A DNA stretch of 64,000 bases, from positions 21,577,061-21,641,060 of the forward strand of contig OX453281.1 in the NCBI GenBank assembly GCA_949710005.1. The letters run 5' to 3'. Both the position numbers and the translations under genes were made by a program. Of this stretch, positions 2,512 through 61,100 are shown in pieces. The notes beneath the pieces were generated by a model. It was not told the origin of the DNA. It saw nothing but the letters and a program-made list of their open reading frames with translations, and made no database searches. Source of the stretch: Ricordea florida (Eukaryota > Cnidaria > Anthozoa > Corallimorpharia > Ricordeidae). How positions within the stretch are numbered: position 1 is the stretch's first letter; every line of letters starts with the position of its first letter.

Positions 2512-5500
2512 GTTAGTGATTCAATTGGTCCTCGACCTTTTGGCTAATGTTTCAATTTATTGTTATCAAACCAATGCCAAGGTAAGTAGGTTATTGTTAC
2601 TTAGTTTGCAATTTTTGCAATTTTCTGAAAATTGCAATTATAGTCTCATGAAAATTAACCAACCGAAATTTGATACCGCGCAACATGATTCTTAAGGAGA
2701 ACCCATTTTTAACAATGTCAAGCAGCTGCAAGCATGATTTGACAGTGTCATGTATATAGTACTCCATGTCAAATTGTTTGTAGTTTTTTCTTGGTCATTT
2801 TGGTTTTGTTCAGTGTAAAGGAAACTATCCCTATGGAAAATGAAAATCAGTCGTACCAATTCTGAGACTAACTGTTTGTTAATACAGATCAGTATTGTAA
2901 CAACTTCCGCAATATTTAGTGCCCTTATGATGGTTTTTTTTTGCACAAATTGCGAGATTTAAGTCCTGCGAAATATGCTAAATGAAGTAATTAATAAGGG
3001 ACTCTGGCCAATTGCAACAATTGTGGTATAGGCCACCATATAGTCACCAAATGTAGTGTTTACAGGGGTATACAAGGGTTTTGAAAGGTATATCCTTGTA
3101 AACCCTTGTATACCCCTGTAAACTGACTACATGGTGGCCTACCATGAATTATATTAAGCAAATGCATGTATCTCAAAAATAGTATGGGTGACTAGAATCT
3201 ATCATTTTCACTGATAGGTGCTCTTGGAACACCCCACTCCAGTCGTGTTTAGGTTATGAGCCCCATTCTTTCCCCACTCTCTCCTCCCCCAACCTCTATT
3301 TAGAACTCATTTGGTTTTCCAACTGTGTTTGATGTGGAACTGAATATCTAAGTTACTACTCACGGGGGTCCTCTTTTGTTGTAAAGAGTTCTTTTGTGAG
3401 TTTACTGAGTGCTTGTTCATCGTCCCAACTGATTGACAGGTGAAAAGCCATACAAGTGCGAGTACTGTCCTAAGTCATTCCATATGCAGGGTCATTACCA
3501 GTACCACGTGAGGAGACATACTGGTGAAAAGCCTTATCAGTGTGATATCTGTGGTAAAGCCTTCAGTTACTCCACTAATCTAACAGAACACAGGAACGTG
3601 CATACAGGAGACAGGCCACACGGGTGGGTATTAATCAAACATATCAGTCGCCATAGACGCGAAGAGTGACCCCGAAAAAGTCGTTACACTTTGGAATCGT
3701 TCTAAATTAACTTTTATCCATATGCGAGATATTGGTCCTTTGATGCTGGCGAACGTTTCCACGCCGGTGGAGAATATTGTTTTATTATACTTTAATTTTT
3801 CAGTTGCCTTGACGAAGATTTCTCTGGTGAAACTGAAATGAGGGCGATATTCATTTTTTTAGCTGACCTTTTCTCGAAAACGGAGGGACTTATTGGCATG
3901 TTTTTTGTTAAAGCTCTTAATCTGGGGTGAGGCAAATATAGAAAGTTTGGTCTAGACGAGGGTATCAGTTGGAAGAAAAATTTCCGTTTTTGGCTAGATA
4001 GATACCGTTGCGAATTTTCAGCCAAATATGGTCTAAAATGCCAAGGGTTCAGGGTTCTAGCGGCACCCCCGCCCTAAAATTCATCGCGTGCCCCCTACCC
4101 CAGGGCGAAGGGATCACCACAGTCGCACTGGAATCAGTTTAGAGGTATTTAATATTTAACAATTATTCGCCTAAGGCGAAGTTATTCTCGGTGAATATTC
4201 ACTGAGACGAAGTCGAGGTGAATATTCACCGATAATCACTGAGCCTGAGGCGAATAATTGTTTTAGTATAAACACACAAGTGATTATTTCAAAAAAGAAT
4301 AGAAAAAGCATTGTACAACACGAAAAAATTTTATTTCATCAAAAGCGCGCGAACGACTGGCAGCCATTTTGTTCGTCGAGGTGATTATCGGCTGATAATC
4401 CGAGATAGAGAACCAGTCAGAGCGCGCGGTTTTGTTTAATCACCCGAGTATTTATACTAATATTCATTATTGGTGATACGAAACTGAATATTAATTATTA
4501 ATTTATAATAATGCACTTTATTCAACAAATAAAGAAGCCTAAGCCGTGTATTACACTATAAAACTCAACAGGCATTTGAGAACTCGAGTGAAATTGCAGC
4601 TCGTGTTTTCTACATTTCTCGAGTGTTCTCAAATGTCCGGAGTGTTTTATCACAGTGTAATACACGACTTAGGCTTCTTCATTTGCTTTATGATATAAAT
4701 TTATACTAATATTCATTATTGGTGATACGAAACTGAATATTAATTATTAACTTATAATAATGCACTTTATTCAACAAATAAAGAAGCCTAAGCCGTGTAT
4801 TACACTATAAAACTCAACAGGCATTTGAGAACTCGAGTGAAATTGCAGCTCGTGTTTTCTACATTTCTCGAGTGTTCTCAAATGTCCGGAGTGTTTTATC
4901 ACAGTGTAATACACGACTTAGGCTTCTTCATTTGCTTTATGATATAAATTTTACACGCCGCGAGTAGAAACAACAAAGCACACAAATCGACAAACTGACG
5001 CCATGTAATACCAACTTCTCGACTGTTTTCGCTTCTTCTTCTTTATTTGTTATATTAACCTCGGCTTCAAAACTTTCTGCTGCTTCGCAGAGAACTTCAT
5101 CATGAATTTCTTCAAAGAAAATGTTTTTCGCCATCTCTAACAAAAATGTCGATTGGGGGTAATGTGGCGACAAGAAATAAAACACGCTTTTTCTATGTTT
5201 TATACTCAGATAAAACATGGGTTTTGGACCAATCAGAGCGCGCAGGGTCGTATCTATATTATGAAAAATATTCTCGGTGAGCGCTCACGTGATCAGTAAT
5301 GTAGCAACGGTTGCTACGCCGCCATTTTGGTGTACAGGTCAGGTAAACAAATCTACGTGCGATCCTTTCTTGGACACGAAATTTGCAAGGTTTCACAATG
5401 GTTTTATGTATGGTGCTCGGATGCTCGGTGCGAAGTGGTCGAGATAAGAATGTTTCTTTCTTTCGAGTGCCTGCTGTTGTTAAAGATAGAGGGGAACAGG

Positions 5501-8500
5501 AGGAAGAGCTTTCGCATGAGCGACGAATGATGTGGATCTCTGCCATTAGTCGGGAGAAGTTGACTGAGAAGATTTTGTGCAACGACCGTGTATGCAGTAA
5601 GCATTTTGTGTCTGGTCGTCCTTCGCCTTTATGGGACAAACACAATGTGGATTGGGTACCCACGTTAAATTTGGGACATTCAAAACGACGCCAAGTGGAT
5701 CATGAGGCTATGAGTGCTCGGGCAGATAGGGTGAGAGAGCGAAGGAAGAGAGGCCTTGAAATGCAAGCTTTGGAGACCGCGAGCAAGGTAAAAAAACTTA
5801 ATGAACCAGGAGAAACCATCTGTTCCTTAGATTTTAACGTTGTGGAAGAAGAAACTGACGAAAAACAACCGCTTGTTAAGGACAGTCTCCCGTCTTGTAG
5901 TTTTTCGGATGACTCCTTTCAGCGTGTAGACCAAGGTTGTCAGACGGAGGAGTTTGATTACATGTTTGAGAAAACCAGCTCCTACCAACCGTTCTGCGAA
6001 AGCTATTTTTCTGGCGACGATGATAAAGTCCGTTTTTATACTGGACTGCCATGCTTTTCAGTTTTAAAAACAACTTTAAACCATGTTGCACCACATGTTG
6101 ATAAAAGCTCCAAGAGCCTGACGCAGTTCCAGGAGTTTATTTTGGTCCTGATAAGACTGAGACTTAATGTGTTCTTACAGGATCTGGCCTACCGATTCGG
6201 AATCTCCAGAAGAACCGTTAATCGTATAATATCTACTTGGATGGAAGTCATGGACGCTCGTTTGAGCCCACTTATTTCCTGGCCAGACCGGGAGAGTTTG
6301 TGGGCTACCATGCCACAATGCTTCCAGTATTCCTTTGGGAAAAGGACAACAGTTATTTTAGATTGTTTTGAGATTTTTATTGATCGACCAAGCAACCTTC
6401 TAGCAAGGGCTCAAACATTTTCTAACTACAAACACCACAACACCATCAAGGTGCTTATTGGTATAACCCCTCAAGGAACCATTTCTTTTGTATCTGAAGC
6501 ATGGGGTGGTCGCACCTCAGATAAGTATCTCACAGAAAATTGTGGAATACTTGAAAAGCTTCTCCCTGGAGACATGGTTATGGCCGACAGGGGATTTACT
6601 ATCCATGACAGTGTGATGTACAAGCAAGCAAGTCTTGTAATTCCTGCCTTTACGAAAGGAAAGTCCCAGCTGGATCCTATAGATGTGGAACGCACAAGAG
6701 GGATTGCTAATGTGAGAATCCATGTGGAGAGGGTTATTGGCCTGTTACGGAGGAAATATACTATTTTACAAGGAACACTCCCCATAGATCTGCTTAAATG
6801 TAACCCTTCAGGCACGGTGGATAGCAGAGTTCCTATGATTGATCGCATTATTAGGGTTTGTTCTGCACTGATCAATCTATGCCCACCAATTATTCCTTTT
6901 GATTAGTCACAAAATTAACAACATTGATCATTCTACTGAATATAAGGCAAAGTTGATTATGTGAATCTTTACTGTTTATCTTTATGTAATGACATTAATT
7001 GATCATCGCAGTTATGTACACAACTTAAGCAGCCGTAAAATTTAAGCCTGAAAAAAAAAACTCGGGCCTGAACGGGATTCAAACCCATGACCTCTGCGAT
7101 ACCGGAGCAGTGCTCTACCAACTGATCTATCAAGCCTACTGGGAGCTGGTCATATTGTGAGTTCATAACATACCTGTAGATGGAAAAGAATGATGCAAAT
7201 GAATATATGAAAGACCATATATTTGAACTGCGGAGTAATATGTAATGACATTAATTGATCATCGCAGTTATGTACACAACTTAAGCAGCTGTAAAATTAA
7301 GCCTGAAAACAACTTTAATCTTTAATTACTGACACGTATTGAACGTAAACAATATGTATTTCACAGGTTGCTGACATCTCTGATAGTGGAAAAACCTAAT
7401 TTAAACCATCAGGGTTTCCAGTAAGATTCTAAATAAGTTGCTGTTCCCATTTAGAACTAGCCAGAGTTGTTATTGATGTCAACAGACATGACACTAGCAC
7501 CATTGAAGGGCTTGAGTCTCTGGGGGTATGGTGGCATGTCCCCTCAGAAAGGTTCAGCTACATAAATACCATTTCTTGAAATCCTGAACCTGGTGAAACT
7601 TTTTCCAAGACAAACATTTACAGTCTACTGCAATTCATTTCAATTCTAATCAGAAAATAATTAATGATTAAAATAATTAAATTCATTATGATACCAAAAA
7701 ATTTTAAGCTTGATTCATTGCATTCATATTATGTTTATCATATGTGTGCACTTAAATTATTGTTGGAAAAAGTGACATTTTCTTATTTTTGAAGCAACTA
7801 AGCAGATGTGGACGCATTTTTCTAATATCAAAATCCACATCTTCTGGTTTGATACCATACACTAGGCAGGTAGCAAATGCAATGGCAAATACCCCACAGT
7901 CACTACCATTGTTTTGCTGTTGAACAGGGACATTCTGAAGACCTTTATAGGCACCAGCCATCATGCTCTTTACTTGCTCTTCCACCTCTGTCTCAATGAT
8001 ATCATGGAATAAACTATCATAAAGATTAACCATGCCAGGCAAGCAACCCACCGAGCTCACACAGACCCAGTGCTGGTTACCTGTATGAAGTATCTGAATA
8101 AATTCACCTGTCATGATTGTGAAATTTCTAATTGGTCCAAGTGTTGGTCTCTGAAAACCCTCTATCATAGGATTTACTTCTTGTAACAGTACATGAGCCT
8201 GTTGAATTATTGAACAGTGTAGCCATCCATTTATAGAGAGTATCACATTATAGTCATTACTATCAAGCTCTCCAAGAAGGTCCTTAAAGTGTGGATGAGG
8301 GGTTCTATAAATTCTGGTGTTAGTTGGAGCATGATGGACTGTAGGTAGTGCACCTTGGGCAAGGGGTATGACAGGGACTGCCTTCTGGATAAGGAGGGAA
8401 GAAGGTACACCAAGTGAGCCCTGGGTAGGGGTGGGTATGCAAGGTTCAACAAGTGAAGCCTGAGTAGGGGGTCTGGGAATTGCACCAGGTGACCCCTGGG

Positions 8501-11500
8501 TAGGGGGTGTGGGAGGAAGACCAAGATTGGGCACCCAGTGGCTGGAAAATTGTGCTGTAGATCCTCGACAGGCTGGACATTGCCATGTGGATTTGCTGTT
8601 GTTAGGCAACCGTTTATAGTTTAAACAACCCAGATGGAAAAACTTTCCATTGGAACAACTGACATTGTGGCATTCCAGAAGCTTGGCATTACTCTCTGCT
8701 TTGGCCTTGCAAACACATATATGAGAAAGGCTAAGGGCTTCTGCTGGGGCAGATACATTCTTTGGTTTTCCTTTTTTTTTCTGGAACTGAGGTAGCTTTC
8801 GACAGAGTGGGCAGTACCATGTGGGCGGAATAGAAGTCGAAATGGCCAGGCAAGAGTGATGGAAAGTAACATACAGGCAAGCAGGGTTAGCACATGTTGC
8901 TGTAGTGTCTTGTTTGTCCATTCTGCAAAAGCAAATTGAGTTTAAGTTTGAAGTGCTAGGACCTTCTGGACTAGTTATTCTCCTGGTATACCATCGTCCA
9001 AGAACTTCTGGTAAAATACAAGTTTTCCAAAATGTGATAAGTTTAGGGAGGCAGTCATCCCAGTGTTTGTGGTCTTTGTATATTCGCTCCTGAACAATGG
9101 CAGTATCTTTCTCATTACAAACAGCACAGACTACAAAGTCACAATACCCAAGGTCTTTATTTGCAGAGAAGAGTTGCTGTTGTACTTGGTAGTAGTAATT
9201 GTGTTTTCTTTTAAGTCTATACACTCCATTCACCTTTTCCAAACATGTTGCTTTCATTGAAAGATAGGATTCAAAATCAGAACCTTCAATGCATATTGGG
9301 CACTTAACCTCCCCACAACCTTCTCCACAGCATGAACATGAACACAAAAAATCAGGTGTTGCATGTAGGAATTGATAGTCTCTGTTGATAAAAGTACCAC
9401 AGTCTTTTACTTGAAAATCTCTGTGATTCTTTTTCATTTCAGTTTCATAATGCAAAATGGCATCTTTCTCATGTTGACAGCCATGAAGTACTGCCTTAGT
9501 AGTTACTTTAAAGAGATGCGGGTAACAGATGGACTTGATGAGAGACTGTGAGGGAAGGGCTGGATTAGTATGACATACTGCACCACTCAAAGATGCACCA
9601 ATGCGTCCAGCTCTATGTTTAAAGAAACCTGAACCTTTGGCTTGTGACCTTGTGTCTTGTTCAATTTGCAGCATGTCACTTTCCGACAACTGAATTTTAA
9701 CCTTGCTGCAAGCTGTAAGTAAGTCTGGGTACGAAAAAGCCAAATATTTTCTATCAAAAAAATCCGAAACTGTTGGAACGTTGCGGCTTTTCTTGACAAA
9801 CGCTTCTGCGTGGGGCTTAATCAGGGACAGTGCAACAGCTTTGGTCTCACACTTGCTGAGTTCAGAGTAAAATAAATCCATTTCACTACGTGTTGGTGTT
9901 GGGGTTCCCCCTTGAGAATCTCGAGCTTGAAAAGATGGCATCTCTGATGCTCCATGATCTCCGAGTGATAAGCTATCGATGCTTTTGTCGAGGTCTGCTT
10001 TCATTTTTCTGGCGGAAGTTAAATTTATATCGGCAATTTTGGCATACGGAACTTCTTTCACAAATGACGGCAAAAGCCAAGCGCACTTGACTTGGGTACA
10101 AGACAGCTTATCGTTGATTCGAGTGTAAGCTTCTAGGTAAAACAAAACACTAGCTATGTGGGAGCAGGACTCTGAAAGGCCGGCCTTGCACCCAAGGCAG
10201 TGGGAAGATAAAATTGTGCCATCAATGCTGGTTATCAGCCAGACTGAAACCAAAGCATCGTTCATCCGCTGTGAATGGCGCACGCTAGCCAGAACCACGT
10301 AATTATCCTTCACGATACGGCCACGAACATTGGTTACAAACCCTGAAACCATCTGGTTATAAGCCTGAAGGCTTTTATATGCTTTAAACTGTTCTTTCGT
10401 GTAGTAGCTTGTTGTGAGGACAAGGTAGCTTACCAGATCCATGGATTCTACAGGGGGAATACAGTCCGCGTCACATTGTTCGTCCAAGAGAGTAGCCGGA
10501 TCTACTCCTACAGCAGATGTTTTCAGCAGATATCTTCGCTTAACATGAGGTTCGAGACTTCTATAATACTCTGAAAGCACTTGGTAATCTTTCTCCACAA
10601 CGCTCAGGTCTTCTAAAGAACTTGATGTTTCGGAATCCATAGCAATATTACAAACTACATAGGTCTGGACTTCGAAATGAATTACGTGACCTGTGCACCA
10701 ACATGGCCGCCAGATAATCTGCATAATTTTGTGACGTCACGCGCCCACGAAGAATTATCAGTAGAACGCGCGCTCTGATTGCTGATTGGCCAACTCCCCG
10801 GGTTTTCAACAAGCTATGTTAACACAGCAATGATGTCAATACGAACTGCTTGCCGTGGTCTTATAAACTTGAGAAACAGGGCTAAAAATTGGCGGTCGCA
10901 CGGTCGCCAGTGGCGAGTTAAAACTGACCAGGGCTACCAAAAGTTAAGGTTTGAACGCCCGATGCGCGACTATGCTACAGAATTTCGAAAAGTTGCAATG
11001 TAAATTATTCGAAGTACAAAGTTAAAAATAAAATTCAGCATGTAGTTTACCACTGAATTTTTAGTTCTGAAGTGGAAATTACGAGGCGTTTTAACAGTGA
11101 TTTCACGAGCGATCCACATTCACAACATATAGATGCCATTTTGATTTTGTGATTCCCACGTGACTCTGAAAAAAAAAATCGTGGGCTACTTCATTTTGGG
11201 ATGGGCCACTAAGAATTCCAGGAAACTGTCCCCACTGGCCACCAAGCATTGGAGTTAATTTTTAGCTCTGGAGAAATGGAAAATAGGCGGCTGCTTTCTG
11301 TTTATATGAACTGGCGCAAACATTTGAGTTCGTCTGAACACTTGCGCAACATTGAAATTCTCTCAAACCTCTCTAGTGTTTGCATCAATCGGCTTATTTG
11401 TACACCTGCAGCGTTTTCGTTTCTTTGAATCATTCATTTTGCTTCTGTAGTTGTTGTCACTGTGACAAGAAGTTCACTCATCGTTCCACCTTAAAGCAGC

Positions 11501-25493: not shown

Positions 25494-27739
25494 ACTACAG
25501 TCATTACAGTCATATATATATATATATATATATATAAAAACGTTTGAAAAAGCAAGGACGGACGACTTCTGACGATAAAAAAGTTAAAAAGTTAAAAATT
25601 TAATAGAAAACGTTTCGGTCTTAGACCTTCGTCAGTTACCGTTTTTAAATTCATTTTTGTGGTGAGGCTTGGACTGTGAATCTTCATTGATCCTCCTGAC
25701 GCAGTGGCATTCTTTGTTGGCTTGAGGCATTTTATAACCGTTTTTTATATATATATATATATATATAAAAACGTTAGATAAAGCAAGGACGGACAACTTC
25801 TGACGATAAAAAAGTTAAAAAGTTAAAAATTTAATAGAAAAAACGTTTCGGTCTTAGACCTTCGTCAGTTACAGGAGAAAAAGGACGGAAACTAAGTTTA
25901 AATACGGTTACAGTGTGGGAGATTACATACCGAAATGAAAAATACTATCGTGCTATTAATACATCGTGATTAATACAATACAGGGAAAAAAATGCAAAAC
26001 GAGAAATACAATGCTGTACTATAAATTACGTCATACAGGGTGATAATTAATAGACCAAACGAAAAAGATACAATGCTGTGCATAAATTACATTATAAAGC
26101 GGGATAATTGCAGAACTAGGTTAAATTCAACCTAAAAACTAAAATAGTTAAAATAGATAAAACGGACTCTTGCAATGCGGTAAATATTACGGGAAAACTA
26201 GTTTACAAAAATATGCAGAAGAAACCTACGTTTACGCTGGACAGGGTTAATAACAAAATCCCAAATCGAGGCCTTTGGAGCATTAAAGGGTTGACAAACA
26301 ACAAAATCCCTGGAGGGGCCCTTAAACAATAAGCTGTAATAAGATCCCAGGCAGGGCCTTTGAGCATACCTAACACCCAAAGAGCTGGCAAAATCCAAGG
26401 AAGGGCTTTTGGACTGCTTTATGGCGCAAACGCATATTTACACAGGAGAAAGTTAATTATAACAAATTCTGTTTTTGGAGTGAAATTCTTTTCTTTTATT
26501 TAAGCCATGGGGAGCCATAGAAAACAGTTGAGCACTCCAATAAGCCTCTTTCGTAATTAAAAACCTATCGATCTCGTCTAAGTCATTAGGGGCCTGCACC
26601 TGATCAATGCATTGGAATTCAAAATCATCCAAGGAGTGTGGAATTTTATTGAAATGTACTGCTACCTCACAAGTGGTTTTGTTTGTGAGCATAGCAGACT
26701 TGTGGTTACGAAACCTAACCCGAAAATCGGTGGTAGTTGATCCTACGTACTGTAAACGACATTTCTTGCAGGAAACTAAATAGATCACGTTTTTAGAATC
26801 ACAAGAAAGCCTTGAATGAATGGTGTATTTTCTGCACGTTCTAAAACTTAGAAATGATTTAGATTCAACAAAGAAATTTCGACAGAGATCGCATCTATTT
26901 CTTTCACATTTAAAGCAGCCATTGTTTGGCTGAATTGTTTGTCCCTCATCGGCGGTTTTAAAACGAGATGGTGCTAATAATTCTTTCAGGTTTTTTGTTC
27001 TACGAAAAGATGGTATGATAGAGCCTTGAGGGAAAAGTTCTTTCAATTTAGGGTTGGATTGCAAAATCAACAAATGCTTTCTAATTATGCTACTCACATT
27101 AGGCAAGTTAGGATTAAATGTGAGAACAAATGGAAATAATTTTCTCGATTGTTTTCCGCGTTGCCGTAGTAAATCAATCCTAGAAATGGTGGAGGCTTTG
27201 GAGAATTGATCGTCAACTAATTTTGGGGGATAACCCTGATTAACAAGATAACCTTTGTACTCAACTGTTCTCTCGGCAAGGAAAGTTTCTTCAGAGCAAT
27301 TTCTCTTCAATCTAGTCGCTACTCCAAAAGGAATAGCCTTGAAGACATGCTTGGGATGGCAGCTAGAGGGTGGAAGGTATAAATGGCTATCTGTAGGTTT
27401 AGAATAAACATCAGTTCTAATAAACCCTTCCACAAGATGTAAAGTAAGATCAAGTACGTGAAGCTCACGTTCAGAAAAAACTAACTCGAATTTAATAGTA
27501 GGGTATAGAGAATTGATATAATCAGTAAATTGATGTAAGGCAGGAAGGCCTTGCTGCCAAAGATCAAAGACATCGTCACGATAACGCCACCACAAGGATG
27601 GCTTTATCGGACCGGAAAACTTAGCTTTAAGATCAATTTCACCCATGGCTAGATCGGCATAACTACATGCATTTTTTGGACCCATGGCCGTACCATGAAT
27701 CTGAAGAAAGAAAGAAATATTATATATATATATATATAA

Positions 27740-46100: not shown

Positions 46101-49100
46101 ATGGGATGGTCTTTCTGGTGAAAAGTGCATAGCAGGTTTATTATGCGTTTCAGGAAGGTACACCCCCGAGGAGCCACTTAACAGGCATGGTGAAGGTGAT
46201 CAATGAGGGATTTCAACTTTTTCCTCTTGCAAAACTTCTTTGACGCCCATTTTCTTGATAAGCGCTGTTAGTCGTTGCAACGTATCTTGTGGAAGACAGG
46301 CCCGCATACTGTGTGAATCCAGCTCAATGCCCAACACACTGAGACACGTAGAGGGGCCCCTCCAACTTAGCTGGATGTAAAGGAAGACCAGGGTCAGAGC
46401 ACAGCTTGATGGAAGACGCCAGATTAATTTTGTAGACTGAGGTAATGGGTGGTCATCTAAGTAATGAAGAAGCAAGTCTACATCGTAATTGTCAGGATTC
46501 ACTCAACAAGGGGAAGGACCATGTCCACAAAGAACTTGTTGCCCCTCCTCATACCCAGTAAGTAGCGATCCTCTGGGTAGATGGCCACATTCCTGTATGC
46601 ATACTCCATGTTGAACTTTGCCATTAAGTTGTCCCAGCCACGTAACATGAGGCCGTTAATGAGGTCATCAACCTTGATATATTCCAATGAGATCGGATTT
46701 TTAGGAATACCATAATTCACACTCAACCCTTCTGGACTGGACAAGTCAAGGATAGGACGCCATTTCCCAAGCTGGCTGTTCCTTGGGATAACTCCAGAAT
46801 GACTCACAACTGAGGTTACCGAAGGGTGGGGTGCTGAATGGGCGAGCAATTCTGCTTTTGGAAACTTCAGTGTTAAGGTAGGTGTCAATAACTTGGGAAT
46901 GAAGGGACAAGGATTGCTTGTTAGAAGAAGCTCACTGCAAGGGAGACGAAGAATTAAGGCCAACACGAAACCTGTCACAGAGCCCCGCCAAAACATGTGA
47001 CACCAGAGGCTGGACAGAAGGCTGGAGTTATCCCAAGGAACAGCCAGCTTGGGAAATGGCGTCCTATCCTTGACTTGTCCAGTCCAGAAGGGTTGAGTGT
47101 GAATTATGGTATTCCTAAAAATCCGATCTCATTGGAATATATCAAGGTTGATGACCTCATTAACGGCCTCATGTTACGTGGCTGGGACAACTTAATGGCT
47201 GGTGAAGGAAGAGGCAGTGAAGGTTGCCCCCGTTTATATGCCAATATTGAGTTATGTATTTTTGCTTCATGGTAGAATGGAACGCAACCTATCGGTAATT
47301 GCTTAAAAAGTTTCACACTTTTCGCTTTTGTGTCACCTCCCAGTATTACATGGGATTCGCATCTCTGTAGCCTGAACACTTTCTGAATGTTTTCTACGGA
47401 ACAGGATGTCCACACAGTTAAGGCATACAGCATTGTCTGTTTAATCATTGCATTAAATAGAGCTTCCTTTGATCAAGAGGCAGTGAGCAAAGAAAGTCAA
47501 AGAGGCTAAGAAGTACAAATTTTGTTGGGCGAAAAATGGCCTTGTGTATCTTCGCAAATCTGAAGAATCCACAATTTACAAATTCGCCGACCTTTCTGAG
47601 CTTAACAAGAAATTTAGCACGGCCTCAGAAGCTGGAGTGAACGATCACCTACAGAGCTAAGTATTCATAGTACCTTTTATATTTTATATTCTATCATTAC
47701 GAAATAATCAAGTTTGACTACTGAAATGCCTACAAAGACCAGTGCTAAGCAACAACAGAAGTTAAATAAATCTCTGTTAAAAGATTTACCGTATTATAGT
47801 TTCAGAGGTAACTTAGTCCTTGTCCATGGCCAATTTAATAATTCACTCAACTGTGAGCTCCCGACTAAACGAGATCTAGATAAACTCCATAGCTTATATG
47901 ATCTGGATTTGTTTAATTTGAATATGGCCTTTGATACCAACCAAACTGATATTGATGCTTTAATGAGCCAATGTATTAGAAGCCGATATTTTTCTCCACA
48001 CAGTTTTAAGCAGTTTACTAATAATCTTACGCAGGATCAAATTGAATCTAATCTTTCAATTTTTCACAATAATATTAGAAGCCTTAATCGTAACCTCGAA
48101 AATCTAGTGACTCATTATTTACAAGAATTAGGTATTCACTTCAATATAATAGGTGTCACGGAAACTAAAATCACCAATTCTAATGAGAATACAGGCCTTT
48201 CAAACATACCCGGTTACATTTTTGAACACGTTCCAACACCTCTGGCATGTGGTGGTGTAGGCCTCTTTGTCGATGAAACACTTAGTTATTCAGTTTTAGA
48301 GAAAACTTCCACCGAATCTTTCCAGGCATTGTGGATAGAAATTTCTTTTGTTAAGAAAAAAAACGTAATCTGTGGAGTCTTATACCGTCAACATAATTCT
48401 CCAGAGAGCTTTCTTAAATACTTGGATGAGACTATTGATAAATTTACTTCGGCAGGAAAGAACTTATGTCTCTTAGGTGATTTTAATTTATGTCTACAAA
48501 AAATCGAAACCTGTAATTACAGTCGCGACTTCTTACTGGCTCTTCAAAGTTGCTATCTCCTTCCAACTATTGACAAACCAACACGTGTTCACAAAAATTC
48601 TGCAAGCTTAATCGATAACATTTTTGTGAACAATCTTGAGCAGGTGCTAATCAGCAGTAATCTCATTACTGATGTCAGCGACCATTTTTCGCAGTTTTGT
48701 ATTTTGACATCAACAAGAGATAAAATTAAACGGAAGCAAATTAAAAAACGCGATCTTTCGCATTTCAATCCCGATAGTCTTAACAGCGACCTTGCTACGA
48801 TCGACTGGAGTTGCATTATTAAAACGCACGCAAATAATGTAGACCAGCTATTTTCAACTTTCTATAGAAATTTTAATAAAATTATAAATAGACATGCACC
48901 GATTAAAACCCTTTCTCAACGTAAGATTAAACAATTTTCTAAGCCTTGGATTACAAAAGGTATACGAACGTCAATCAAAGAAAAAAACAGACTGTACCAA
49001 ATTGGCGACCAGGAAAAGTATAAATATTACCGAAATAAAATTTGCAGTCTTATACGTTTGAGTAAGAAACACTATTACTGTGCCTTTTTTAATAAAAATT

Positions 49101-52100
49101 TAAGTAATATGAAAAAAACATGGCAAGGCATAAATGAATTATTAAATCGCTGCAAAAGAAAGTGTAAATCTGTTAGTAAATTAAAAGACCCAGATAACAA
49201 CAATAACCTAACTAATGATTCCTCGCGTATACCTAATATCTTTAATAAACATTTTTCAAATGTTGGGAACATTTTAGAAAGCAAATTACCACCGGCAGAA
49301 CATCCCTTTACAAAGTACCTACGAAACTCCACATCGCCAGAACATTCGTTTTTCTTCAGACCTGTAACTCCATCCGAAATTCAATTTCAAATTTTATCTA
49401 TACCAAATAACAAATCGCATGGCTTATACTCCTGTCCTACTCAACTTCTTAAATACTCAAGCGAAGTCATATCTCCAATTCTTTCAGATATTCTCAATAT
49501 TTCTGTCTCTCTCGGGGCTTACCCCCAAAAACTTAAAACATCAAAAATCATACCTATTTTCAAAGCTGATGACGAGACCGACACTTCTAATTATAGGCCA
49601 ATTTCATTATTATCAAATTTCAATAGAATCTTCGAAAAAATTATGTACGACAGAATGAGAGACTTTATTGAAAAGCACAGCCTATTATATTCGTCTCAAT
49701 ATGGTTTTCGTCAAGCTCACTCAACCCAACATGCTATTCTTGATATGGTAGAAACTATACAAACCAATATGGACAAAAAACTCTTTTCGTGTGGTGTTTT
49801 TATTGACTTAAAAAAAGCCTTTGACACTGTGAATTATACTATTTTACTTGATAAACTAAATTATTATGGCTTCCGTGGAATTGTCAATCAACGGTTTTCC
49901 TCTTATTTATCAAATCGTACACAAAGCACTGAAATCGGCTCTCATATATCTAGTAAACTAAATATCAGTTGCGGCGTACCCCAAGGTTCTGTCCTAGGTC
50001 CACTTCTCTTTATGCTTTATATAAATGATATCCAATATTGTTCCAGCAAACTCCAGTTTTTCCTTTTTGCTGATGACACTAATGCTTTTCATGCTCATAA
50101 AGATTTAAAGACACTGGAACTAACAGTAAATACAGAATTACATAACTTGTATAACTGGCTGACTTCAAACAAACTTTCTCTGAATATTAAAAAGTCAAAC
50201 TATGTAATTTTTCGTCCGTACCAAAAAAAACTCAACTACGATCCCGAGGTTAATAGTTTTGACAATGAAAGCAATAAAAACGTTACCCTTGAACGTAAAA
50301 ACTTTATTAAATATCTTGGACTGTTAATCGATGAAAATCTATCTTGGAAGACCCATATTTACTCTGTTGCAAACAAAATAAGTAAAACAATTGGGCTAAT
50401 TGCGAGATTAAGACATATTGTTCCCACTTGCACCCTCCTAAATATTTATCAGTCACTAATTACACCTTATCTAAGTTATGGTTTTATCTCTTGGGGCAAC
50501 GCGTGTAAAACTTTCCTTGACCAAATTCTTGTCCTTCAAAAACGTGCACTGCGTTTAATATATTTTGCTGAAACAAACGACCATGCAATACCTTATTTTG
50601 TAAATGCAAAAATTCTACCTTTACAGTCTCTATATTATGAATCCGTTTGTAGTCTTATGTATGATATAAATAAAAACACTGCTCCGGATAATATTTTGAA
50701 ACTCGTTTCTCGAATTTCTAGTGTTCATACTTACAACACACGTGCCTCAACTTCTGAACATTTTTATACTAAAGAATCTCGACTCAATGTCAAACGAAAT
50801 GCTTTTTCACGTGTTGGGGTCAAAATTTGGAATGGGATACCTCAAATTCTTAAAGAAAGACCGAAAAAAGCTTTTAAAAGATCACTAAAAGAAATGCTAC
50901 TTGATATCCTTTTAACTGAAGACTCCTATTATATTGATGTGGATGCGATCATCGTGAAAATGAAGAAGTAATTCTCTTTTCTGTTATTTTCATTTCATTT
51001 TATTTTTAAAATTTCACTTTAATTGTCCTTGAACTTAAGTTGAATAGTATTTATTTAATGTCAAATATCTATACTTATATCACATCCAATTTCTTTCTTT
51101 TCTGGTATTTGTCTAGTTTGTATGTAAATTATGTAGCCTGGCCTGCCTCGAATAGCCTTGCTAAGTGCAGGCCAGTCCCAATGTATCTTTTGTTATATAT
51201 TTAAATAAAGTTGTTGTTGTTGTTGTTGTTGTTGTTGAGCGTCTAATTTTCCGCAACAAAGGGATTCTCTGTGCTAACTTCTTGCATAGGTCAGCCACGT
51301 GCTAGTGAAAGGAAAGCTGACTATCGATCTTCACCCCATACAGTTTGTGCGAGTGTACAAGATTTAGTTCAGAAAACTTTAAACGTAACTGAACAGAGGA
51401 ATGTTTTTCATTTTCTTCAATTGTTTTCCTGTAGCAAGCATAGATTTTGCTTTGGACTCGTCTAACAACATTTGGGCAGATTAGATAATGAGTACATTAG
51501 GTTAGCCAATCAGACTGGAGAATTCATGATTGTAGGTGACATGGTTTCTTCTGACTAATTAACAATAAGACCCGTAGCCCTTGAGGGCGAAGGGTCTAAT
51601 TGTTTTAGTATCACCCAACTAGTCAGACAGAAAAAGCAATAATAAAAGAAAGTTGAAAGAAAGATTTATTTGGGAATAAAACAAAAGAAAGCGCCACGAA
51701 TTTCGCTACTCGGGGACTATTACTAATAGTCCTCTAGTAGCGTAGCCAATCAGATTGCGGCATTTGCATTAGTCCACTAGTTGGGTGATACTTATGCCGA
51801 GTAACCACGGGATGGCCTAGCACTCATTCTGAGATATAGAAATTGGGATAGGTGTATGCCTTGTCTGGACCCCATGGGAACTGAAAAAGGGTGATTTTTA
51901 GTTGATTGTTTCAGCCATTTTATTGGTCATTTTTTTCTGTTTTCTCACTGAAAAACATCGGTTTTTATTTCCGTCTGCATGGTATACGGTTTCTCTGTAT
52001 TTCCTTTTTTTTACCATTTGGTTTTCGGTTTTTGGCAAATATACAAATGCTTTTCTTGGATTTCAGTAGTGTCTGACAAGTGACTGATTGTTGCAAGTTT

Positions 52101-58100: not shown

Positions 58101-61100
58101 GAACTTATTTTATACTAGACCTTGACAGTACAAGTCACGTTCCCAGTAGGGTGTGAACAACAAAACACCCACAGGAAATAACGGACAGGACATGATTAAA
58201 ATCCTGTGCTAGAAAATGTGCTGTGCTTTTGGGGCTCACGTTAAAACCGTCATCTTGATGAAGTATCACTAGCAGACGAAACCGGTCGATTAATAAACTT
58301 AGCTCTACAAGACAAATTGCTGTGTGTTGTCCACTAGGTCTCTAAGAAAAATTCAGAAAACGTGCGTGAGTCACAGTATGCACCAGAATGACTGGTTGTC
58401 AATTTGTTCAACAGGGCGTTAGGAATTGCCATGGTAGCATCATTCTTTTACATTCTGGTTATGAGGTGAGGCCGATAAGCGTCAGGGTTTAAAGTAGACT
58501 AATGCCGCGTTCACACCAACTGAACTTGTTTAGTTAAAGTAGGGTTTGAAATTTTCAGAACAGCCTCCCAAACGATTTAAGTCTAATCTTTACACATAAT
58601 GAGAAAACGAGGCTAACAGTGATTCATTAGAGATAACTTTCAAGTCAGTATAAAATTTACACGGAGCTGCTTTGCGCAAAGTGATTCCAAACTATTCCTA
58701 AACAGCTTTCAAACATGTTTAAGCTCCGGTGTGAATGCAGCATACGATCTCTAAACAGTTTTATTATATCTCTCAGTTATTACGCGCGCTGTAATTGGTC
58801 AATTTAGCAGGCTGTACTTCACTGTACGGCCCGCTAAATTCAAAAGTTTGTTTTGAGATATAATAAATATTTTACAAACCTCGTTTTCTCCGTCCGTACT
58901 GTAAGTTACGGATCCTCGTTATTTCCGCTTGGATTTATGGCCCGCGCGCTTCGTGCTTGGGGCATAAATCCGAGCGGAAAAACTCGGTCCGTAACTTACG
59001 GTACGGACCTAGAACTCGGTTAGTAAGAGGTATTTAACATATTAGGACAGTTGGCAAAAATTTTCCCCAGGAGCAAATGCTCCCCTCCTCCCCTCTCTCC
59101 CAACGCTTAATCAAAAATCACGTGGTCATTCCCTTAGTATTGCATCATGTGTGATAATGTAACTGTCTTGGAATGTCTTTAACCACAGCTTGTCCACATT
59201 CAATCTACCAAGTACCATCTGGAAACTCAGGAGAAATCAAATGAACCAGTCAAATTAGTCTCGGTAGTTTGATGTACTTACTGGGAAATACCCACATCTG
59301 CTCACAATGGAAGACACATTGCTGTTGCAAATGCTTGTTGTTTACGATGCATCACAGAAGCTGGACAGTGCCAAGAAGCTCAAAGACTGGGTCAAGCATT
59401 TTCCAAATATGGTACTAGGGGAATATTGAATCTGGACAAGCTGTGAACTTGTGTCACAAGTCTAACGTCTTGGGGGTGTCTGGTCATATCATGTGCATTA
59501 GACTTTTGTCGAGGTTGTAATGTTCAATTAAAGGGGGAGTAATAGCAAACATGTAACTGAACTTATCGTGCTCTTAATAGGTGGATTGCTGGACTGATTG
59601 TGTGGCTGACAATTTACGCTATACTGACTTTGCTTGGATTCTGTAAGTCCATTTTCATGTAATATTATGCATGGTATGCAGCCCATACTTGGAATGTTAT
59701 CATTGCTCCATATCCTTGGTCAACAAAACAGGGTAATACACCAAGACTCTTGTGTGCCTGTTGTGTTGACACTCTATGTGCATAAATACTTGCAGTAATT
59801 ATTCATTACTGAAGCCTGATTTTGGCAGACAATCCATGTTAACCTCCCACTAAGCCTCTTTCCCATATATTTTTAAATGCCCTTTGTGGCATTTAACCAT
59901 GTATGGGAATATTTAACAATTATTCGCCGAAGGCGAAGTGACTATCGGTGAATATTCACCGATAATCACTGAGCCTGAGGTGAATAATTCTTTTAGTATA
60001 AATACACAAGAGATTATTTAAAGAAAAAAAAAGAAAAGAAAAAGCATTGTACAACACGGAAAAAACTTTATTTCATCAAAAGCGCGCGAACGACTGGCAG
60101 CCATTTTGTTTGTCGAGGTGATTATCGGCTGATAATCCGAGATAGCGAACCAATCAGAGCGCGCGATTTTGTATAATCACCTGAGTATTTGTAGTAAATA
60201 TATATATGGAAACTTTATGGGTGGTTAGCGTGGATTATATGCCCTGACTTTGTGTAGGAAATATAACCTTTCACAAATCAGACAAACACATAAACACGGC
60301 CCCTAGCCCAGAAAAAAGGGAGCTTCAGAGTGTAGAGTTGGTATGAAATTCAACCTATTAAAAAGCTGTAAGGCGTCCTGTTAGGTTTTATTTGAATTAC
60401 AATAAAACACCAGTGACAGTAATATTTACAGTACTTTTTTAAACTAAGTTTTCTGTTAACCAGTGGATGTTGTTTCTGTTTGCGTGAAGTTTCAATCAGG
60501 GTGTTTTTATTTTGTTTGAATTTGACAGCTGTGTACTACAGTTGGACAAGATATCAAGATTTGAAGACCAACCCCAACGCAACCAGCAATGTTCTGTCTG
60601 TGGCTACAGGCCTTGACAGTTATGCTAACAACGCCGAAACTTGGAAATGGTTAAGTAAGTGTAACCATCCTTGGTCAATTAACCTCATAATCCTTAGGAA
60701 CTGGTCTTTGCTAACAAAGTTAGCAAAATCTTTTAATTTTTTATTACAATTCTTAATTTTGACCAAACTGTTTCATTCCTCCTTCAATCCTGGCCAAAAA
60801 TTCGCTGGACAGGACACAAAATAACATTGTCAGTGAACATTGTATTCTGCATATCTTAAACCAGTCTCCTAAATTTTTATTAACCTGTCTTTGCAATTTT
60901 AATACCCCCCCCCCCCTCCCCCCAAACAATGTTGAGAGCAACTGGAATCATTCGGACTGTAGATAAACACAGCATCGTATCAACATTGCATGGGGAGGGG
61001 GGCGTGGAAATAGTTCGTGATCAAATTTGCAAATCGTCCCAGTATTTTTGGCCAGGATTGAAGATTTCAAGACCAACCCCAAAGCAACCAGCAATGTTCT

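What the first reader, a model, noticed from the sequence alone, without database searches (positions are those of the whole stretch)
5225..10795. Two-gene transposon whose partner protein fuses YqaJ nuclease, two PHD fingers and a C48 protease
The sequence shows an open frame with a SWIM-like motif, YqaJ nuclease residues (HE, D458, E-V-K), two PHD fingers and a Ulp1-like protease with His, Asp, Gln and Cys in place. YqaJ proteins are known partners of ISL2EU transposases. The added chromatin-reading and SUMO-protease-like parts would let an element choose or alter its insertion chromatin; that role is inference. I do not know a description of this full domain order. Both genes of the element look intact.
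Basis: partly seen in the sequence, partly recalled or inferred. Interest (0 to 1): 0.8.

Follow-up and report, generated by a model that had tools for sequence, protein, structure and literature searches.

The report
Transposon with SUMO-protease-type nuclease partner
A recently moving "cut-and-paste" jumping gene, with about 25 near-identical copies in one (probably cnidarian) animal genome, carries beside its transposase a second protein that joins a DNA-cutting enzyme, zinc-binding parts and a protease of the kind that removes SUMO tags; similar proteins occur in corals, a sea anemone and amphioxus, and might help the element use or escape its host's SUMO system.

Summary
Gene 1 is a THAP-HTH-DDE transposase. 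Gene 2 (962 aa) joins a SWIM-like N-domain, a YqaJ/lambda-exonuclease-like nuclease, two PHD-type fingers and a SENP/Ulp1-type C48 protease, key residues intact. It is no chance fusion: of 44 aligned sequences (corals, anemone, amphioxus) 44 match YqaJ and 43 C48, and 42 of 45 gene-2 loci in this genome have a convergent transposase (two more masked). The 25 full-length rows, the window's included, differ from the window copy by 0-4 of 2,973 bases, with AT target duplications: very recent movement. Coding content and AT duplications are ISL2EU-type; the usual GG termini are absent. Against necessity: 50 of 85 transposase loci have no listed gene 2, and of six read one has it, two carry broken remnants, two none, one is masked. 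Chromatin reading is unsupported: ING H3K4me3-cage aromatics are absent in 83 of 83 sequences. I found no paper describing this architecture. Most likely gene 2 is a transposition helper, able to act in trans, whose nuclease works at DNA ends and whose protease strips SUMO-type tags; that role is inferred.

The parts
5272..10753 (.). the transposon, 5482 bp, two convergent genes
   Evidence: ends set by comparing the window with copies elsewhere in the same genome
5270..5271 (.). left target-site duplication AT
   Evidence: AT in 18 of 18 left junctions read, 20 asked
10754..10755 (.). right target-site duplication AT
   Evidence: AT in 19 of 20 right junctions of the paired set, AA in one; empty-site comparison
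5272..5332 (+). left end: imperfect TIR (TCTCGGTGAGCGC...), CACGTG at position 15, GCCATTTTGGTG at position 50
   Evidence: similar layout at both ends of families L051 and L052; no shuffle control made
10696..10753 (-). right end: imperfect TIR (TCTTCGTGGGCGC...), TGACGTCA at position 15, GCCATGTTGGTG at position 47
5398..6906 (+). gene 1, transposase: THAP (about 5407-5670), HTH_Tnp_4 (6115-6270), DDE_Tnp_4 (6358-6876)
   Evidence: D327, D402, E449 in 120 of 120 aligned sequences, itself included
7752..10640 (-). gene 2, 962 aa from M29 (the open frame reaches 10724, 990 aa)
10005..10640 (-). gene 2 N-terminal domain with SWIM-like C-x2-C-x7-C-x-H at 10158-10199
9156..9626 (-). YqaJ / lambda-exonuclease-like nuclease
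8802..8933 (-). PHD-type zinc finger 1 (ING-like, without the ING K4me3 cage aromatics)
8568..8717 (-). PHD-type zinc finger 2
   Evidence: PF00628 6.7e-05 on the cut-out, just under the cut-off; ligands 80-81 of 83
7755..8288 (-). C48 (SENP/Ulp1-type) protease domain: H885-W886, D903, Q937, C943
7064..7136 (-). tRNA-Thr-like sequence inside the element between the two genes, between two copies of a 60-bp repeat (6983-7042, 7239-7298)
   Evidence: passenger, role unknown
5227..5243 (+).
10768..10784 (-). NOT part of the element: right arm of the same flanking repeat

Best explanation
A recently active cut-and-paste transposon of ISL2EU type. SHOWN: two convergent genes, each starting just inside one end; AT target duplications; 25 nearly identical full-length copies; gene 2 of the same domain order beside THAP-DDE transposases in several divergent families. 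INFERRED: the THAP-DDE transposase binds the ends and cuts the element out. Gene 2 is a transposition helper, able to act in trans. Its lambda-exonuclease-like part processes DNA ends at the excision gap or during joining; its SWIM-like and PHD-type modules hold it to proteins (possibly DNA) at the complex; its SENP-like protease removes SUMO (or a similar tag) from the transposase, repair proteins or host silencing proteins at the element, so favouring transposition. That the protease is catalytically active I put at 0.85, a tag-removing role in transposition at about 0.4, host silencing as main target at about 0.27.
Confidence: 0.45

Rival explanations
1. Gene 2 is not required for transposition; it serves the element's fitness only at times (for instance against silencing), or is optional, and transposase-only relatives show the minimum.
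For: Transposase families without an intact gene 2 have spread in the same genome: L070/L074 (none), L072/L075 (broken remnant).
Against: Constraint on gene 2 between families and 42 of 45 pairing; help in trans from intact copies is not excluded.
Confidence: 0.2
2. The protease matures the element's own proteins, as adenain- or poxvirus-type proteases do, by cutting gene 2 (or the transposase) between domains.
For: C48/CE-clan proteases serve as maturation proteases in DNA viruses (recalled); a long variable linker separates PHD2 from C48 (gap fraction 0.61).
Against: No conserved Gly-Gly in the linkers: 7 of 83 in the PHD-to-C48 stretch and 4 of 83 in linker 1. The one GG conserved in over 60% of transposases (119 of 120) lies inside the DDE domain. 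The fold matches de-SUMOylases better than a viral maturase (poxvirus I7L only at E 0.019).
Confidence: 0.08
3. One reading: PHD fingers read chromatin and the protease alters it, steering where the element inserts.
For: Two well-kept PHD-type fingers, the first nearest to ING fingers.
Against: ING cage positions are aromatic in 0 of 83 sequences; junctions share only W-AT-W, one G. Preference at the level of chromatin could not be tested.
Confidence: 0.1
4. Gene 2 is a recombination or replication helper: the lambda-exonuclease-like part resects DNA so that the gap is repaired with copying of the element, and the protease frees SUMO-coated repair proteins.
For: Best nuclease matches are recombination exonucleases (lambda exonuclease, LHK-Exo; viral alkaline exonucleases and YqaJ proteins of giant viruses).
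Against: No annealing partner is encoded in the element; direction and processivity unknown.
Confidence: 0.2
5. The C48 and PHD parts are a chance fusion or a captured host gene with no function in the element.
For: Plant transposons often capture host gene fragments, ULP among them (PMC2528002, passages).
Against: Same order and ligands across divergent families and two phyla; constraint between families; recurrent pairing with the transposase.
Confidence: 0.03

Closest known systems
[quoted passage not shown] PMC9179366, passages)
   Same: two genes; THAP-HTH-DDE transposase; second protein with a YqaJ domain; 2-bp AT target duplication; about 5 kb
   Different: second protein also carries SWIM-like, two PHD-type and a C48 part, none of which those passages mention; ends begin TCT (AGATC in two related families), not GG; site W-AT-W rather than strictly A-AT-T
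ULP/C48-bearing plant MULE and CACTA transposons (PMC2528002, passages)
   Same: a SUMO-protease-type domain carried by a cut-and-paste transposon
   Different: other transposase superfamilies; there described as captured host sequence; no YqaJ or PHD in the passages; plants
SENP/Ulp1 de-SUMOylases (SENP5, SENP3, SENP1, yeast Ulp1)
   Same: fold and H-D-Q-C catalytic set
   Different: 14-19% identity; fused to a nuclease and zinc fingers
YqaJ/lambda-type exonucleases of phages and large DNA viruses (lambda exonuclease, LHK-Exo, mimivirus R354)
   Same: fold and E, D, E-x-K active-site residues
   Different: cysteine-rich segment before the E-x-K motif and fusion partners
ING-family PHD fingers
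   Same: zinc ligand pattern and overall match
   Different: aromatic cage for H3K4me3 absent

Membership tests
ISL2EU transposons | transposase with THAP, HTH and DDE_Tnp_4 domains, DDE triad | tested here: met
   triad 120 of 120
ISL2EU transposons | second gene with YqaJ domain | tested here: met
   44 of 44 sequences
ISL2EU transposons | 2-bp AT target-site duplication | tested here: met
   18 of 18 left and 19 of 20 right junctions read; one paralogous empty site
ISL2EU transposons | target A|AT|T | tested here: inconclusive
   5' base T 11, A 6, G 1; 3' base A 11, T 9: AT-rich, not strictly A-AT-T
ISL2EU transposons | termini usually begin GG (stated as usual, not invariable) | tested here: not met
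   TCT here, AGATC in L051/L052
ISL2EU transposons | transposase clusters with ISL2EU in a PHIS tree | not tested
   no reference ISL2EU/Spy/Harbinger proteins were in hand
C48 (SENP/Ulp1) peptidases | H-D-Q-C catalytic set in the Ulp1 fold | tested here: met
C48 (SENP/Ulp1) peptidases | cleaves SUMO after Gly-Gly | not testable with these tools
   needs enzyme assay
YqaJ nucleases | E, D, E-x-K active site in the lambda-exonuclease fold | tested here: met
PHD fingers | eight zinc ligands C4HC3 | tested here: met
   PHD1 82-83 of 83, PHD2 80-81 of 83
PHD fingers | PF00628 match above Pfam's cut-off | tested here: not met
   whole protein none at E 0.1; PHD2 cut-out 23.3 against 24 bits, PHD1 cut-out no row
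ING-type H3K4me3 readers | aromatic cage (Tyr and Trp) | tested here: not met
   0 of 83 aromatic at either position; cage positions recalled, placed by the alignment
SWIM zinc fingers | CxCx(n)CxH and SWIM fold | tested here: inconclusive

The most novel reading that the evidence does not exclude
A transposon lineage of cnidarians and amphioxus carries its own counter-defence enzyme: a nuclease-tethered de-SUMOylase that, brought to the element's ends with the transposase, undoes SUMO-dependent silencing or repair signalling there. Intact copies supply it, also to transposase-only relatives in the same genome, so it is a kept part of the transposon community rather than captured cargo.
Probability: 0.27. 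Interest if true: 0.8.

Novelty: new variant of a known kind. Interest (0 to 1): 0.55.

Why it matters
The job of the second (YqaJ) protein of ISL2EU elements is stated to be unknown (PMC4482050, passage). Here is a lineage in which that protein is fused to a SUMO-protease-type enzyme and zinc fingers, in a family young enough that intact copies are plentiful, beside relatives that have lost it, so its role can be tested directly. If the protease matters, it would be a case of an animal cut-and-paste transposon carrying a kept enzyme aimed at the SUMO system, which animals use in small-RNA-guided silencing.

Tried and rejected
Chance fusion: rejected. H3K4me3 reading by the ING cage: not supported. 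Self-processing at Gly-Gly: no conserved site. Viral or prokaryotic relatives: none confirmed in viral contigs with P0002, P0001 or the alignment, nor in genome contigs with the alignment, so no named outside loci could be compared. Constraint among the young copies: none seen. Gene 2 as an obligatory cis partner: not borne out; the short gene 2 of L072/L075 at first looked like a protease-only variant but carries stops in both copies. A large stock of short derivatives: not seen with the 150-bp right end (34 rows), but that probe is mostly gene 2 and would miss elements sharing only the outer ~30 bp. Relatives without C48: 54 of the 120 rows lack the precomputed PF02902 label (counted by eye); of the 37 relatives under 780 aa, 11 reach the C48 part, 7 end at residues 700-812 and 19 before 700. 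I take most for broken or partial copies, but real C48-less versions are not excluded. Literature, by search listing: YqaJ, PHD finger, transposon, 0 papers; transposase, THAP, Ulp1, PHD, 0; YqaJ, transposon, coral, 3, of which the 2 listed concern Rickettsia and mriyaviruses; transposon, YqaJ, Ulp1, 1, on mimiviruses; transposon, Ulp1, SWIM, transposase, 2, on grapevine and a maize element; Zisupton and protease, 12, 10 listed (passages of PMC12062965 and PMC5718144 seen, no YqaJ or Ulp1 there); three of transposable element, C48, PHD, YqaJ, 6, none on this by title (the PHD of PMC9179366 is a degree); ISL2EU, 32 papers, 30 listed, titles read; PMC12730594, passages, has ISL2EU but no YqaJ, Ulp1 or PHD. 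Repbase entries and subscription papers (the Zisupton/KDZ papers among them) were not available; the architecture may be recorded there. Species of the window not identified. One search was a script error (minus-strand loci not turned) and is replaced.
Full report
WHAT IS THERE. Between 5272 and 10753 sits a two-gene DNA transposon. Gene 1 (5398-6906, +) is a THAP, HTH_Tnp_4, DDE_Tnp_4 transposase whose D327, D402 and E449 are kept in 120 of 120 aligned proteins, itself and 119 of the 120 best-listed of 3910 hits, the window's own entry left out. Gene 2 (10640-7752, -) is convergent with it and encodes, in order: an N-terminal domain with a SWIM-like zinc motif, a YqaJ nuclease, two PHD-type fingers, a variable linker, and a C48 protease.

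TRUE BORDERS. Comparing copies in the genome shows sequences diverging at a fixed point on each side. The ends are TCTCGGTGAGCGC... and, read inwards from the right, TCTTCGTGGGCGC.... AT adjoins the element in 18 of 18 left junctions read (20 asked; in L037 and L043 the end was not found at the expected place) and in 19 of 20 right junctions, the other being AA. One paralogous empty site was found in the sequence held: the joined flanks of copy L019 align without a gap at the junction to a stretch of L051 (72% over 162 columns), with one 2-bp unit there; the 18 other joined sites gave none in that sequence. The base before AT is T 11, A 6, G 1 and the base after is A 11, T 9.

COPIES AND AGE. 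One search lists 58 match rows for gene 2, lower bounds by the tool's own words. Twenty-five cover all 990 residues at about 100% identity, the window's copy among them. They differ from the window's copy by 0 to 4 of 2,973 bases; over 300 pairs the mean is 2.69 and the maximum 7, and 8 of the 25, the window's own row included, are identical to the window frame. One (L023) has a stop at residue 587. The family therefore spread very recently. The 150-bp right end gives 34 rows, 31 of them at 97% or more.

ONE UNIT, MANY FAMILIES. The 58 gene-2 rows were merged by hand into 45 loci: 31 of the young family (95-100%) and 14 at 49-58% identity. A convergent transposase row lies within 12 kb in 28 of 31 and 7 of 14 (given 39 transposase places picked by hand from the 133 rows; in two of the 28 the gap is 4.6 and 6.5 kb). 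Reading the DNA raised this: L052 has one, and six of eight re-read loci do. In all 42 of 45; two loci are masked there (L053, L061) and one (L056) has none within 2.6 kb. In the young family the two genes are 841-856 bp apart in 25 of the 26 loci that carry both in full or nearly so (2,774 bp in C3:18063770). Families L051 and L052 also end at AT, with AGATCGTTTTCA termini. In all six ends of these three families CACGTG or TGACGTCA begins at position 11 or 15 and a GCCAT motif at 37-50 (GCCATNTT in five, GCCATGCT in one) (no shuffle control). I recall GCCATNTT as a YY1-type initiator motif and the others as E-box and CRE sites; the ends may double as promoters.

THE OTHER WAY ROUND. Counted from the transposase the pairing is weaker. 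Six of the 50 were read. L073 has a convergent gene 2 covering residues 50-988, in two frames. L072 and L075, alike at 98.5% over 4.2 kb, keep only residues 49-252 and 832-987, with stops in both copies: a broken remnant. L070 and L074, alike at 99%, have a transposase and no gene 2; the shared stretch is about 3.1 kb in L074. L071 is masked beyond its transposase. Some 30 transposase rows have an open frame of 545-555 aa like these two (counted by eye; not shown to be one family). So gene 2 is not needed in cis for spread. Either intact copies help in trans, as autonomous elements help non-autonomous ones, or gene 2 is optional.

CONSTRAINT. Between families, uncorrected pN/pS (window against L051) is 0.26 for the N-domain, 0.34 YqaJ, 0.37 PHD1, 0.40 PHD2, 0.38 C48, and 0.56 and 0.73 for the linkers; window against L052 gives 0.25 to 0.49 for domains and 0.69 and 1.09 for linkers; L051 against L052 gives 0.14 to 0.45 for domains and 0.48 and 0.69 for linkers. 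Synonymous sites are near saturation, so these only rank the parts. Among the young copies, 20 nonsynonymous and 9 synonymous distinct base changes show no constraint, as expected of new copies.

DISTRIBUTION. Named relatives are Montipora, Oculina, Stylophora, Acropora, Nematostella and Branchiostoma and Porites; most rows are unnamed. In a FastTree of the 83 sequences two amphioxus proteins group together and a third sits among families that include Stylophora and Montipora, support 0.954, which fits old lineages or horizontal transfer; with most tips unnamed I do not choose.

COMPARISON AND VERDICT. By transposase, YqaJ partner and AT duplication this is ISL2EU-type (PMC4482050, abstract and passages; PMC9179366, passages); GG termini, given there as usual, are not met, and a tree was not made. 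C48 in transposons is known from plant MULE and CACTA elements (PMC2528002, passages). The second protein with these parts was not found in print in the searches named under Tried and rejected; the named database entries are mostly 'uncharacterized' or 'hypothetical'. New variant of a known kind; interest 0.55.

Noticed in passing
L070 (G000:C13:19684000-19691000) and L074 (G000:C14:6602300-6608300): A related transposase family, about 3.1 kb in L074, has a transposase (60% identical) and no gene 2; L070 carries a ~3-kb insertion. Some 30 similar transposase rows exist in the genome (by eye).
   Followed up: partly
L072 (G000:C4:10277500-10284500) and L075 (G000:C1:24890900-24896500): A related 4.2-kb family keeps a transposase and a broken gene 2 from which the nuclease and PHD parts are deleted while N-domain and C48 pieces remain.
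   Followed up: partly
window 7064-7136 (-), with 60-bp repeats at 6983-7042 and 7239-7298: A tRNA-Thr(GGT)-like sequence lies inside the element between the two genes, flanked by a 60-bp direct repeat; possibly a tRNA-derived SINE or captured tRNA.
   Followed up: partly
window 5272-5332 and 10696-10753; L051 and L052 ends: All six ends of three families carry CACGTG or TGACGTCA at position 11-15 and a GCCAT motif (GCCATNTT in five) at 37-50, as if each end were also the promoter of the gene that starts there.
   Followed up: partly
window 4411-4427, 58784-58800, 60148-60164: The motif GACCAATCAGAGCGCGC recurs in other repeats of the window (6 hits with up to 3 mismatches, 0.03 expected) and in a very common host repeat of the genome.
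   Followed up: partly
window 5122-5271 and 10756-10905: This copy of the element jumped into a copy of a common interspersed host repeat (left flank 86-93% alike to dozens of listed places).
   Followed up: yes
window 47714-50971 (+): Open frame of 1085 aa with endonuclease and reverse transcriptase domains (non-LTR retrotransposon type).
   Followed up: no
window 26453-27685 (-): Open frame of 410 aa with a GIY-YIG nuclease domain (3.4e-05).
   Followed up: no
P0092 (Nematostella): A predicted protein joins a PIF1 helicase to the YqaJ-PHD-C48 protein; may be a gene-model fusion with a neighbouring element.
   Followed up: no
P0068, P0069, P0079 (Branchiostoma): Amphioxus copies fall in two places of the gene-2 tree, one among families with coral members: possible horizontal transfer.
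   Followed up: partly
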